From Nitrosomonadales bacterium (lineage in GTDB: Bacteria; Pseudomonadota; Gammaproteobacteria; Burkholderiales; Gallionellaceae): 33,893 nt of DNA. The stretch covers positions 1-33,893 of the forward strand of contig JACREB010000138.1 in assembly GCA_016218475.1 (NCBI GenBank), given 5' to 3'. Below, piece after piece: positions 9,579 through 33,893 of this stretch; within the stretch, counting starts at the first letter, position 1, and every line of letters begins with the position of its first letter. The translations under genes and the position numbers were made by a program. The notes below the pieces were generated by a model. That model saw only the letters and a list, made by a program, of their open reading frames with translations. It did no database searches and was not told the DNA's origin.

Positions 9579-10658
9579 ATGCCGTGGCTGACCCTCACCG
9601 TTGACGCTGACGAGGAACATGCCGAAGCGCTGAGCGAAGCATTGCTGGAGTTCGGCGCGCTGTCGGTGGATTTGCTGGATGCCGATGCGGATACACCGGA
9701 CGAGCAGGCGATTTTCGGCGAACCCGGCGAAGCGCCGCCCCGACGCGGTGCGGTGGAACCGTCTGGTGCGGGAGGGGCGGCTGGGCGGTTGCTCCCGCAA
9801 TCGGCTGGCTTCGCCATAACCAGCGACTTGGCGAGTGTAGTTGACTCGCCTAGTCGAATGGCTAGTGGTTATATCAGTAACGTGTCGCAACTACCGCACG
9901 GCGTGTGGCAACACAACCGTGTAAGCGCATTATTCGATAATGACCGTGATGTGGCGGCAATCTTGCACAAAGCCGCCGGCAGCATCGGCCTGAAGAACCT
10001 CCCCGAGCACCGCATCGAGACACTGGCCGACAACGACTGGGTGCGCCTCACCCAATCGCAGTTCGAGCCGATCCGGATTTCGGCGCGGCTGTGGATCGTG
10101 CCGACCTGGCATGTTCCCGGCGACCCGGATGCCGTCAACATCGTGCTTGATCCCGGCCTGGCATTTGGCACCGGCAGCCACCCCACCACGCGGCTCTGCC
10201 TGCGCTGGCTTGATGACAACCTGCGGGGCGGTGAGAGCGTACTGGATTACGGCTGCGGCTCCGGCATCCTCGCCATTGCCACAATCAAACTGGGGGCTGC
10301 ACGCGCCACCGGTGTTGATGTAGACTCGCAGGCTGTGACCGCCAGCCGCGATAACGCCGCCGCGAACCGGGTCGAAAACGTACAGTTTTACCAACCCGAC
10401 AACGCGCCGCAAGGCAGCGCCGAAAAACTTTTGGCCGTGTACCCGTACGATCTGGTGGTGGCGAATATTTTGACCAACCCTCTGCGCATGCTCGCCCCGT
10501 TGCTGGCAGGTGCGACGCGGCAAGGCGGGCAAATCGTGCTATCGGGAATCCTTGAGGAGCAGGCGCAAGACGTGATGGACATATACCGGCAATGGTTCGG
10601 CCTGAACACTCCGGTTTTTGAGGAGGGATGGGCATGTCTGTCCGGACGGAAGCGTTAA
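9579..10658 (+). CDS. prmA: Ribosomal protein L11 methyltransferase carrying a 49-codon in-frame repeat insertion
   Basis: LDPGLAFGTGSHPTTRLCLRWLD and LDYGCGSGILAIATIKLGA motifs; 359 aa versus about 290-300 aa usual for PrmA. The excess corresponds to codons of elements A+B at 9741-9887. Confidence 0.95.
   Translation: MPWLTLTVDADEEHAEALSEALLEFGALSVDLLDADADTPDEQAIFGEPGEAPPRRGAVEPSGAGGAAGRLLPQSAGFAITSDLASVVDSPSRMASGYISNVSQLPHGVWQHNRVSALFDNDRDVAAILHKAAGSIGLKNLPEHRIETLADNDWVRLTQSQFEPIRISARLWIVPTWHVPGDPDAVNIVLDPGLAFGTGSHPTTRLCLRWLDDNLRGGESVLDYGCGSGILAIATIKLGAARATGVDVDSQAVTASRDNAAANRVENVQFYQPDNAPQGSAEKLLAVYPYDLVVANILTNPLRMLAPLLAGATRQGGQIVLSGILEEQAQDVMDIYRQWFGLNTPVFEEGWACLSGRKR
9741..9887 (+). repeat. 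Element A (87 bp) interrupted by element B (60 bp), inside prmA
   Basis: Left 75 nt (9741-9815) and right 12 nt (9876-9887) align to the 87-bp element at 32476-32562. Confidence 0.92.
9816..9875 (+). repeat. Element B (60 bp), nested in element A within prmA
   Basis: ataaccagcgacttggc-gagtgtagttgactc-gcctagtcgaatggctagtggttatatc. Confidence 0.92.
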
Positions 10659-22772: not shown

Positions 22773-22956
22773 GCGATACTGCGTTGGCTTCTTCGTTCGC
22801 TCCTAGTCGTGTAACGGCGACACGTTACTGGCAAAACCAGCCGATTGCGGGAGCCGTTACTTGGCCGTTCCTCCCGCACCGGAGGGCTACGCCCACACCG
22901 TCTCGGAACGGCACAAGCACTGCCAGCGTCGCTCACTCGTTGCCGCCTTGTCTCGC
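22773..22956. repeat. Repeat family 'D' copy, interrupted by element A
   Basis: Ends gcgatactgcgttg and cgccttgtctcgc match 15850-15935. Confidence 0.55.
22818..22905 (-). repeat. Element A, intergenic copy (88 bp)
   Basis: cgacacgttactggc...cagccgattgcgggag...ctcccgcaccgg...accgtctcg; same arms as 9741-9887 and 32476-32562. Confidence 0.85.
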
Positions 22957-27192: not shown

Positions 27193-27327
27193 TAGGGTGG
27201 GCGCGCTTTTGTGCCCACGCGGATACCAAACCGCGTGGGCATAACCAGCGACTTGGCTGTCGTCTTTTGACAGCCTAGTCGAATGGCTAGTGGATATATC
27301 AGACGATAAACCTGTCTGCCTACCCTG
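27193..27327. repeat. gtagggtgggc...-type palindromic repeat, interrupted by element B
   Basis: tagggtgggcgcgcttttgtgcccacgcgg..ccgcgtgggc [B] ...gcctaccct. Confidence 0.65.
27241..27300 (+). repeat. Element B (60 bp), intergenic copy
   Basis: ataaccagcgacttggc-tgtcgtcttttgaca-gcctagtcgaatggctagtggatatatc; arms match 9816-9875. Confidence 0.9.
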
Positions 27328-31731: not shown

Positions 31732-33627
31732 TCAATAGTCAGGATGAATTTTCTCCTCTCGCTTCTGAAGGCTCCACATTTGCGCATAAAGCTTGCCCTG
31801 CGCCATCAATTCGCGGTGCGAGCCGCGCTCGACGATGCGCCCCTTGTCCATCACCAGTATCTGGTCGGCATCCACCACGGTGGACAGGCGATGCGCGATG
31901 ATTAAAGTGGTGCGATCCCGTGCAATCGCATGCAGTTCGGCCTGGATCGCCTTTTCCGATTTTGAGTCGAGCGCGGAAGTGGCTTCGTCGAAAATCAGTA
32001 TCGCCGGGTTTTTCAGGATGGCGCGCGCAATCGCCACGCGCTGCTTCTCGCCGCCTGACAGCTTCAGGCCGCGCTCACCCACCATGCTCCCGTAACCCTG
32101 CGGCAGCGATTCGACGAACTCGTGGATATGCGCGGCCTGCGCCGCAGCGATGATTTCATCGCGCGTCGCATCGGGACGCCCATAGGCGATGTTGTAGTAA
32201 ATCGTATCGTTGAACAGCACGGTGTCCTGCGGCACGATGCCGATCGCCGCGCGCAGGCTGCTTTGCGTCATCTGGCGGATGTCCTGGCCGTTGACGAGGA
32301 TGCGCCCCTGCCGAACATCGTAAAACCGGAACAACAGGCGCGACAGCGTGGACTTTCCGGCACCGCTCGCCCCTACCACCGCAACGGTGTGCCCCTCCGG
32401 AATCGCAAAGCTCACGTCGAACAGTATCTGCCGATCCGGCGCATAACCGAAACTGACCCGCTCGAAGCGCACCTCCGACACGTTACTGGCGCAGCCAGCC
32501 GTTTGCGGGAGGAGGTGCGATGCGGCCACTCCCGCACCAGACGGCTCCGCCGCACCGTGTCGTGGCCGCACTTCGGCCTTGCCCACCGACAAGGCCTGCG
32601 CGTCCGGCGCGTCGGCGACTTCGCGGTGTTCGCGCAGCAGTCCGAACATTTTCTCCATATCCGCCAGGGCGTGGCGGATTTCGCGGTAAACATATCCGAG
32701 AAAATGCAGCGGCATGTACAACTGGATCATGAACACGTTGACCAGCACCAGATCCCCCAGCGTCATCGTCCCTTCCACTACACCCTCTGCCGCCAGCAGC
32801 ATCAGCGCGGTGATGCCGGCGGCAACGATACAGCTCTGCCCGGCATTCAGGTAGGCCAGAGAAGTCGTGTTGCGCACCGCCGCGATTTCCCAATGCTGCA
32901 TATTCTCGTCATAGCGCCGCGCTTCATATTGTTCGTTGCCGAAATATTTCACCGTTTCGTAATTCAGCAGGCTGTCGATGGCGCGGCTGTTTGCCTTGGA
33001 GTCGAGATCGTTCATGGAGCGGCGCACCACCATGCGCCACTCGGTGACAAACAGGGTGAACGCGACATACATCAGCAAGGTGATAAACGTGATCACCGCG
33101 AACCGGATGTCGTATTTGCTGATCAGGATTGCGGCCACCAGGAATATTTCCAGCAGGGTGGGCAGGATATTGAACAGCATGAAGTTCAGCAGAAAACCGA
33201 TGCCGCGCGTGCCGCGCTCGATGTCGCGCGACACCCCGCCGGTCTGCCGGTCGAGGTGGAAGCGCAGGCTCAAGCTGTGCAGATGCGCGAACACCTGCAA
33301 CGCCACGCGCCGGATCGCGCGCTGCGTCGCCTTGGCGAACACCGCATCGCGCAATTCGCCGAACAACGTGCTGAGCAGGCGCAGCACGCCATAACCGACA
33401 ATCAGGAATACCGGCACCGCCAGCGCCGCATGGGGCTTATCCAGCGTGTCGACAACCTCCTTGAGCACCAGCGGGACGGATACATTGGCGAGCTTGGCCA
33501 GCACCAGCAAGCCCAGCGCAATCACCACGCGCCACTTGAATTCCCAAAGATAAGGCAACAGGGAGCGCAGGGTCTGCCAGTCGGAACGGTTGCCGCTATT
33601 TGGCGGCCGGATCGGGGAAGGGCACAT
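31732..33627 (-). CDS. ABCB7/Atm1-type ABC transporter (permease-ATPase) carrying a 29-codon in-frame repeat insertion
   Basis: VGASGAGKSTLSRLLFRFYDV, LSGGEKQRVAIARAILKNPAILIFDEATSALD; insertion between GKAEV and RFERVSFGYAP just before the ATPase domain. Confidence 0.94.
   Translation of the reverse strand: MCPSPIRPPNSGNRSDWQTLRSLLPYLWEFKWRVVIALGLLVLAKLANVSVPLVLKEVVDTLDKPHAALAVPVFLIVGYGVLRLLSTLFGELRDAVFAKATQRAIRRVALQVFAHLHSLSLRFHLDRQTGGVSRDIERGTRGIGFLLNFMLFNILPTLLEIFLVAAILISKYDIRFAVITFITLLMYVAFTLFVTEWRMVVRRSMNDLDSKANSRAIDSLLNYETVKYFGNEQYEARRYDENMQHWEIAAVRNTTSLAYLNAGQSCIVAAGITALMLLAAEGVVEGTMTLGDLVLVNVFMIQLYMPLHFLGYVYREIRHALADMEKMFGLLREHREVADAPDAQALSVGKAEVRPRHGAAEPSGAGVAASHLLPQTAGCASNVSEVRFERVSFGYAPDRQILFDVSFAIPEGHTVAVVGASGAGKSTLSRLLFRFYDVRQGRILVNGQDIRQMTQSSLRAAIGIVPQDTVLFNDTIYYNIAYGRPDATRDEIIAAAQAAHIHEFVESLPQGYGSMVGERGLKLSGGEKQRVAIARAILKNPAILIFDEATSALDSKSEKAIQAELHAIARDRTTLIIAHRLSTVVDADQILVMDKGRIVERGSHRELMAQGKLYAQMWSLQKREEKIHPDY
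32476..32562 (-). repeat. Element A (87 bp) inside the ABC transporter gene
   Basis: Minus strand cgacacggtgcggcggagccgtctggtgcgggag...ctcccgcaaacggctggctgcgccagtaacgtgtcg. Confidence 0.92.
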
Positions 33628-33748
33628 ACTCAGTGGGTGAAAAAAATCAGTCGGTGATTATAGCCGCACACATCGTGCCAATACTCGTAGGGTGGGCAGG
33701 TTTTTGGTTACATCAAACGATGAAAGCGTTTACCCTACGGAGCTTATT

Positions 33749-33889
33749 CTTACTGTGTCACAAAGCGCTGAAGGGCGCATTGCGGCGTTAAAATCAGGCT
33801 CAAAATGCTCATTTACTATATGTAAACTCCGCTTTTTCGCCCGATTTTGCCTTGCACTGCATCCCTTGATCGCTTTGTGACACAGTAAG
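33749..33889. repeat. Approximately 141-bp imperfect palindrome with 19-bp perfect terminal inverted repeats
   Basis: cttactgtgtcacaaagcg ... cgctttgtgacacagtaag, with further complementarity towards the centre tttactatatgtaaa. Confidence 0.85.
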
Positions 33890-33893
33890 ATTA

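What the first reader, a model, noticed from the sequence alone, without database searches (positions are those of the whole stretch)
32476..32562. Same element in the same orientation and reading frame in an unrelated gene (ABC exporter)
The ABCB/Atm1-type transporter has 29 extra codons between the membrane domain and the ATPase domain: GKAEV-RPRHGAAEPSGAGVAASHLLPQTAGCASNVS-EVRFERVSFGY. The DNA is 87 bp and aligns end to end with the A element of prmA, with 5 mismatches by hand count in the 70 nt outside the core. The translation frame is identical, giving a shared peptide R[RH]GA[VA]EPSGAG[GV]AA..LLPQ[ST]AG[FC]A..SNVS. The flanks read gaagtgcg / gaggtgcg, a possible imperfect target duplication.
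Basis: seen in the sequence. Interest (0 to 1): 0.8.

Follow-up and report, generated by a model that had tools for sequence, protein, structure and literature searches.

The report
Self-matching hairpin element inside bacterial genes
A short mobile DNA element in iron-oxidising Gallionella bacteria inserts in frame into working genes, adding about 33 amino acids, repeatedly at exactly the same spot in different species, and each copy carries an inner sequence that is the mirror match of its own two ends.

Summary
The genome is a Gallionella MAG with about 39 matches. Homologues occur in 23 of 61 genomes searched (own included) and, with a structure model, in 11 genera of the order.

Among about 31 insertions inside confirmed genes, 23 use one sense frame and 7 one antisense frame. 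Shared frame is not chance (P = 6.5e-8 even after allowing for stop-free frames). This resembles Rickettsia palindromic elements.

Two further findings:
1. Each copy is a double hairpin. Its central 17-19 nt is complementary to its own left end (9 bp) and right end (7 bp). The pairing is exact and covarying (15 of 16 pairs doubly changed, one one-sided change in 208 cells), with no G-T excess, pointing to DNA-level copying rather than RNA selection.
2. The same base pair is hit independently in different species. Filled ABC alleles are not one clade (AU p = 3e-64), and same-site elements are more alike than the genes around them.

No transposase partner was found. Best reading: a new variant of the in-frame palindromic MITE; the mechanism is inferred.

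The parts
32468..32566 (-). Net insertion in the ABC exporter gene (99 bp, 33 codons) relative to empty congeners, including one copy of the 8-bp target duplication
   Evidence: Empty sites in 26 Gallionella genomes; filled in 4
32530..32562 (-). B arm (33 nt, CGACACGGTG...GTGCGGGA), loop of the left hairpin
   Evidence: Conserved in 97 parsed copies
32511..32529 (-). Core (19 nt): first 9 nt complementary to the left end, 7 nt complementary to the right end
32476..32510 (-). A arm (35 nt, TCCCGCAA...GTAACGTGTCG), loop of the right hairpin; roughly reverse complement of B
32562..32570 (-). Left end L9 (TGCGGCCAC), pairs with the core
   Evidence: GGCCAC is absent from the empty site, so element-borne
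32469..32475 (-). Right end R7 (GAGGTGC), pairs with the core; overlaps the target duplication
31732..33627 (-). Host gene: ABCB/Atm1-type ABC exporter
9741..9887 (+). Copy of the element in prmA (B arm 9741-9773, core 9774-9792, A arm 9793-9887)
   Evidence: empty in 29 congeners
9817..9876 (+). Second, 60-bp palindromic element nested in the A arm of the prmA copy, in frame (encodes ITSDLASVVDSPSRMASGYI)
   Evidence: the same unit sits in the A arm of other long copies
22818..22905 (-). Third copy of the element in the window; no Pfam-supported host gene

Best explanation
SHOWN: the insert is one copy of a mobile, palindromic, double-hairpin element of about 90 bp (ends L9 and R7, two conserved arms B and A that are roughly reverse complements of each other, and a 17-19 nt core complementary to L9 and R7). 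It is dispersed through Gallionella and present in related Burkholderiales-type genera of the same order. It is flanked by target duplications of about 2-11 bp. It is stop-free in one sense frame, with a net length divisible by three at the genic sites examined, so insertions into permissive protein loops survive as in-frame inserts of about 33 residues. It occupies the same base pair of the same gene in non-sister species. INFERRED: it moves as a single-stranded hairpin or circle whose joined ends (R4-overlap-L6) recombine with short target sequences resembling them. The core stays complementary to the ends because one side of each stem is used as template for the other during movement or replication (snap-back, quasipalindrome-type copying). 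The acting enzyme is unknown and presumably supplied in trans. The host protein tolerates the peptide; no benefit is implied.
For: Empty versus filled sites at more than 20 loci. Core/end pairing: each of the 9+7 pairs formed in 51-65 of 66 distinct copies, stopping sharply at left position 10 (7/66) and right position 9 (5/66). Covariation 0.732 versus 0.217 +/- 0.029 shuffled; 57 both-side changes against 1 one-side change. RNAalifold finds the same double hairpin unprompted. Mismatches: G-T 11, A-C 15, so no RNA-like G-U tolerance. In-place concerted change in LigA orthologues: right end CAA/CGG together with core TTG/CCG. Frame bias. Recurrence: AU p = 3e-64, at least 3 changes forced. Same-site elements are less diverged than the genes: DapF 0/86 vs 37/300, Pgi 0/86 vs 72/300.
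Against: No transposase or recombinase partner was identified: Y1_Tnp, IS110 Transposase_20 and RVT_1 do not track element presence, and the window's own (86% complete) genome has none of the three. The G008 orthologue of the ABC copy has two core changes not compensated in the ends, so copying is not continuous. Independent insertion has not been fully separated from precise loss or from conversion between copies at each site. Copy counts come from draft MAGs.
Confidence: 0.62

Rival explanations
1. Guided homing: the core (L9' + R7') works as an RNA or DNA guide that anneals to the target, so a given core sequence sends the element to the same site in every species, as bridge RNAs or group II intron EBS sequences do.
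For: Exact 9+7 pairing with the ends. Same-site recurrence in non-sister species. Native flanks resemble the element's ends: left 4 nt 141/284 vs 115.5 +/- 6.1 shuffled, right 6 nt 170/426 vs 128.7 +/- 7.3. Native target matches 7-8 nt of R in ABC, RNase II and the DUF3418 gene.
Against: Within subfamilies the left-side match is not above shuffles (p = 0.16) and the right-side excess is modest (p = 0.008). Several targets match little beyond the 3-nt overlap (AceE, Pgi, RnfC). Core order is rc(left)-nn-rc(right), permuted relative to a contiguous antisense guide. No IS110 or reverse transcriptase gene tracks the element.
Confidence: 0.2
2. Functional RNA, or removal at the RNA or translation level (splicing or ribosome bypass): the double hairpin is kept by selection on the transcript.
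For: Strong covarying stems and conserved loops; sense copies predominate in genes.
Against: Only 1 one-sided (G-U type) change in 208 cells and G-T not above A-C. About a quarter of genic copies are antisense. The frame is open throughout, so removal is not needed. Pairing is partly lost in an orthologue. No Rfam family in the window.
Confidence: 0.07
3. A plain member of an already described class (CGTC-tagged REP or Rickettsia palindromic element), with nothing special about the core.
For: Small, palindromic, in-frame intragenic insertions are known for RPEs, ERIC and some REPs (PMC2229807, PMC10969869, PMC3733652).
Against: Arms lack the CGTC-tagged 8-9 bp stem with a 4-5 nt loop and CCA tail described for CGTC repeats. 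No end-complementary core is described for either class in the passages read. RPEs are reported from Rickettsia.
Confidence: 0.1
4. Assembly or binning artefact of a metagenome-assembled genome.
For: The window genome is a fragmented MAG and several contigs end in element copies.
Against: Same element and same ABC site in independently assembled genomes, including loci from named GTDB records; precise in-frame junctions at more than 20 genes.
Confidence: 0.01

Closest known systems
Rickettsia palindromic elements (RPE)
   Same: About 105-150 bp, palindromic, dispersed, many copies inside unrelated protein genes in frame with a conserved peptide (PMC2229807, PMC10969869)
   Different: Different organism group; no RPE sequence was compared here. 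The core-to-end covarying stems and the independent same-site recurrence shown here are not described for RPEs in the passages read
Other in-frame bacterial MITEs (ERIC/RU-1, YPAL/RU-2, short Correia/NEMIS)
   Same: Small non-autonomous elements whose ORF can fuse in frame to host genes (PMC2229807)
   Different: Described as one long stem-loop formed by the two ends; here the variable stems join each end to the core, giving two hairpins
GTAG/CGTC REP elements and RAYT-mobilised REP dimers
   Same: Hairpin units used singly or as inverted pairs; solo half-elements also occur here; some lie inside genes
   Different: Here conserved loops with variable stems, not a tagged stem; presence of Y1 transposase genes does not follow presence of the element
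Mitochondrial double-hairpin elements (Allomyces DHE)
   Same: Two adjacent hairpins, evidence for mobility (cited in PMC7218506)
   Different: Eukaryotic organelles; the original DHE paper could not be read, so stem covariation there was not compared
IS110 bridge RNA and group II intron EBS guides
   Same: An internal sequence complementary to the element's own ends or target (own knowledge)
   Different: No protein partner found, no contiguous antisense order, far smaller element

Membership tests
In-frame intragenic palindromic MITE (RPE-like) | Small dispersed palindromic element with many copies | tested here: met
   39 matches in own genome; 23 of 61 genomes searched have matches; arms reverse complementary
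In-frame intragenic palindromic MITE (RPE-like) | In-frame insertion in unrelated conserved genes with a shared peptide | tested here: met
   empty sites
Rickettsia palindromic element (the family itself) | Sequence similarity to an RPE family | not tested
   No RPE sequence was at hand to compare; the element is found in Gallionella and other genera of its order
MITE in the strict sense | Ends shared with an autonomous transposon that moves it | tested here: inconclusive
   No larger relative encoding a transposase found around half-elements or by family presence
CGTC-tagged REP | CGTC (or TGTC/CCTC) tag, 8-9 bp stem, 4-5 nt loop, CCA tail | tested here: not met
   Arms compared by eye with the description in PMC3733652
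GTAG REP mobilised by RAYT | Associated Y1 tyrosine transposase | tested here: not met
   Own genome 0 hits; presence does not track the element
IS110-type (bridge RNA) element | DEDD transposase in the genome | tested here: inconclusive
   Only Transposase_20 searched: 0 in own 86%-complete genome, patchy elsewhere
Structured RNA known to Rfam | Match to a curated covariance model | tested here: not met
   No Rfam match in the window

The most novel reading that the evidence does not exclude
A minimal element of about 90 bp, with no transposase of its own, that homes to the same base pair in different species by a 16-nt internal guide complementary to its own ends, the guide being rewritten by templated copying when it lands in a new target. 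That would be a guided mobile element far smaller than those I know of.
Probability: 0.15. Interest if true: 0.92.

Novelty: new variant of a known kind. Interest (0 to 1): 0.7.

Why it matters
In-frame selfish palindromes in essential genes are best documented in Rickettsia, and how they move is unresolved in the papers read. Here a free-living lineage offers dozens of filled/empty pairs, a fixed and measurable anatomy (9+7 bp end-to-core pairing) and independent hits at identical base pairs. That makes the mechanism, including whether an internal sequence directs target choice, directly testable. It also shows a route by which core enzymes repeatedly acquire the same roughly 33-residue peptide.

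Tried and rejected
1. That the core is simply a reverse copy of the target made at insertion. First impression; empty sites then showed L6 is usually element-borne (GGCCAC, CGGCAT, GCCGCYCC) and stems are constant within other species. Only some sites (ADH, the gene-end GTTAT site, NiFe hydrogenase) keep native bases that the core also matches, so this is kept as a partial effect.

2. Association with Y1, IS110 or reverse transcriptase genes: no correlation.

3. Half-elements as ends of an autonomous transposon: none found; they are solo A hairpins or B arms joined to other palindromes.

4. Rfam match, plasmid or phage carriers: none.

5. Shared ABC insertion by simple descent without loss: rejected by tree and AU test.

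6. Horizontal transfer of the filled ABC allele: local flanks of filled alleles are no more alike than those of empty ones.

Full report
The finding. The insert is there (window 32476-32562, minus strand, ORF 31732-33627), and its arms match the prmA copy with 5 mismatches in 68 nt outside the core. The prmA copy also carries a second, nested 60-bp palindrome in its A arm (9817-9876), also in frame. A third copy lies at 22818-22905.

Where it lives. Orthologues of the ABC protein place the window in Gallionella (relatives include Gallionella MAGs and Ca. Ferrigenium straubiae). The window's genome is a 2.3-Mb MAG, 86% complete, with 39 matches to the element. Matches occur in 23 of 61 genomes searched, the own one included. 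A covariance model built from 13 copies finds the same architecture in 20 of 300 genomes and 11 genera of the order. In more distant families the arms and double hairpin are the same but the stem sequences differ and are nearly constant within a species; most of those copies lie outside clear genes, with at least one in frame in a 635-aa ORF.

Insertion sites. Empty orthologues define the insertion exactly. In the ABC gene the empty site reads GCC-GAGGTGCG-CTTCGAG and the filled one GCC-GAAGTGCG-GCCA-element-GAGGTGCG-CTTCGAG: 99 bp net, 33 codons. Similar comparisons were made for prmA, nine further genes of this genome and a dozen genes of congeners. Target duplications range from about 2 to 11 bp, usually with a TGC, GG or TGG overlap.

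Frames and hosts. Host genes include RNase II, RNase R, DapF, SucA, Pgi, PrmA, an RND pump, UvrD, LigA, MurG, ArgS, a RelA/SpoT protein and a fumarase-type lyase. Of about 31 sites with domain or orthologue support, I count 23 in sense frame 0, 7 in antisense frame -1 and one in another antisense frame; two further antisense copies change frame inside the element. The chance of 23 or more in that frame is 6.5e-8 even when frames are weighted by how often the element is stop-free in them. The frame is open in 19 of 25 copies without a host ORF, so openness is a property of the element and not only of selection at each site.

Anatomy. In nearly every copy the core is complementary to the element's two ends: 9 bp on the left and 7 bp on the right. 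Across 66 distinct copies each pair forms in 51-65, and pairing stops sharply at the next positions (7/66 and 5/66); at most pairs this is far above shuffles, the few exceptions being nearly invariant columns. On 13 own-genome copies, 15 of 16 pairs show changes on both sides, with 57 double-changed cells and one single-changed cell. RNAalifold recovers the same two hairpins unprompted. Mismatches show no G-T excess (11 G-T, 15 A-C), as expected for DNA-level copying followed by neutral decay and not for selection on an RNA fold. In LigA, one insertion shared by two genomes differs by CAA/CGG at the right end and TTG/CCG in the core, a concerted change. In the G008 orthologue of the ABC copy two core changes are not compensated.

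Recurrence. The ABC site is filled in four genomes that do not group together. The species tree needs four changes and starred branches force three. The ABC gene tree rejects the filled alleles as one clade (AU p = 3e-64), and local flanks of filled alleles are not especially alike. At shared sites the elements are less diverged than the genes: DapF 0/86 vs 37/300, Pgi 0/86 vs 72/300, lyase 6/87 vs 75/300. Independent insertion at the same base pair is the simplest reading. Precise loss or conversion between copies is not excluded site by site.

Mechanism. Shown: mobility over evolutionary time, target duplication, in-frame tolerance, end-to-core complementarity, same-site occurrence in non-sister species. 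Inferred: movement through a hairpin or circular form whose joined ends recombine with short similar targets, with stem sequences renewed by templated copying. Native flanks resemble the element's ends overall, but mostly at subfamily level, so true guidance by the core is possible, not shown. No partner enzyme was found.

Known relatives. RPEs of Rickettsia and some ERIC, YPAL and REP elements also insert in frame in genes (PMC2229807, PMC10969869, PMC3733652). None of the passages read describes end-to-core covarying stems or independent same-base insertion. The element fails the CGTC-REP description and the RAYT association. Membership in RPE proper was not tested by sequence. I file it as a new variant of a known kind.

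Noticed in passing
window 27237-27303: A second short palindromic repeat (TAACCAGCGACTTGGCTGTC...GACAGCCTAGTCGAATGGCTAGTGG) outside the studied genes, of the same kind as the 60-bp unit nested in the prmA copy; its hairpin stem varies between copies (GGCGAGC/GCTCGCC, GGCTGTC/GACAGCC).
   Followed up: partly
L006 (G000:C186:4300-4607): Two element copies in tandem in one ORF (GHMP kinase, probably IspE), one of them with two nested 60-bp units, adding about 100 residues in frame.
   Followed up: partly
L321, L323, L325, L326, L327, L329, L330: Solo half-elements, mostly a single A-arm hairpin closed by the right-end stem, suggesting that the single hairpin may be the basic unit.
   Followed up: partly
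L008, L041, L042, L043, L044, L126, L131, L159: A similar gene-end site (GAGGTGCGGTTATG, ribosome-binding site plus start codon) is filled in eight loci, with the site duplicated on both sides of the element and one copy in tandem.
   Followed up: partly
L170 and L173 (ADH-like gene): Left end and core both resemble the native target sequence (TGTTGC) and not the subfamily sequence GGCCAC, hinting that the core can be rewritten from the target.
   Followed up: partly
L320, L322, L333: Elements whose core has been replaced by, or extended with, other palindromic repeats between the same B and A arms.
   Followed up: no
window 33745-33893: A 31-nt inverted repeat (90% complementary, 87 nt apart) at the contig end.
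   Followed up: no
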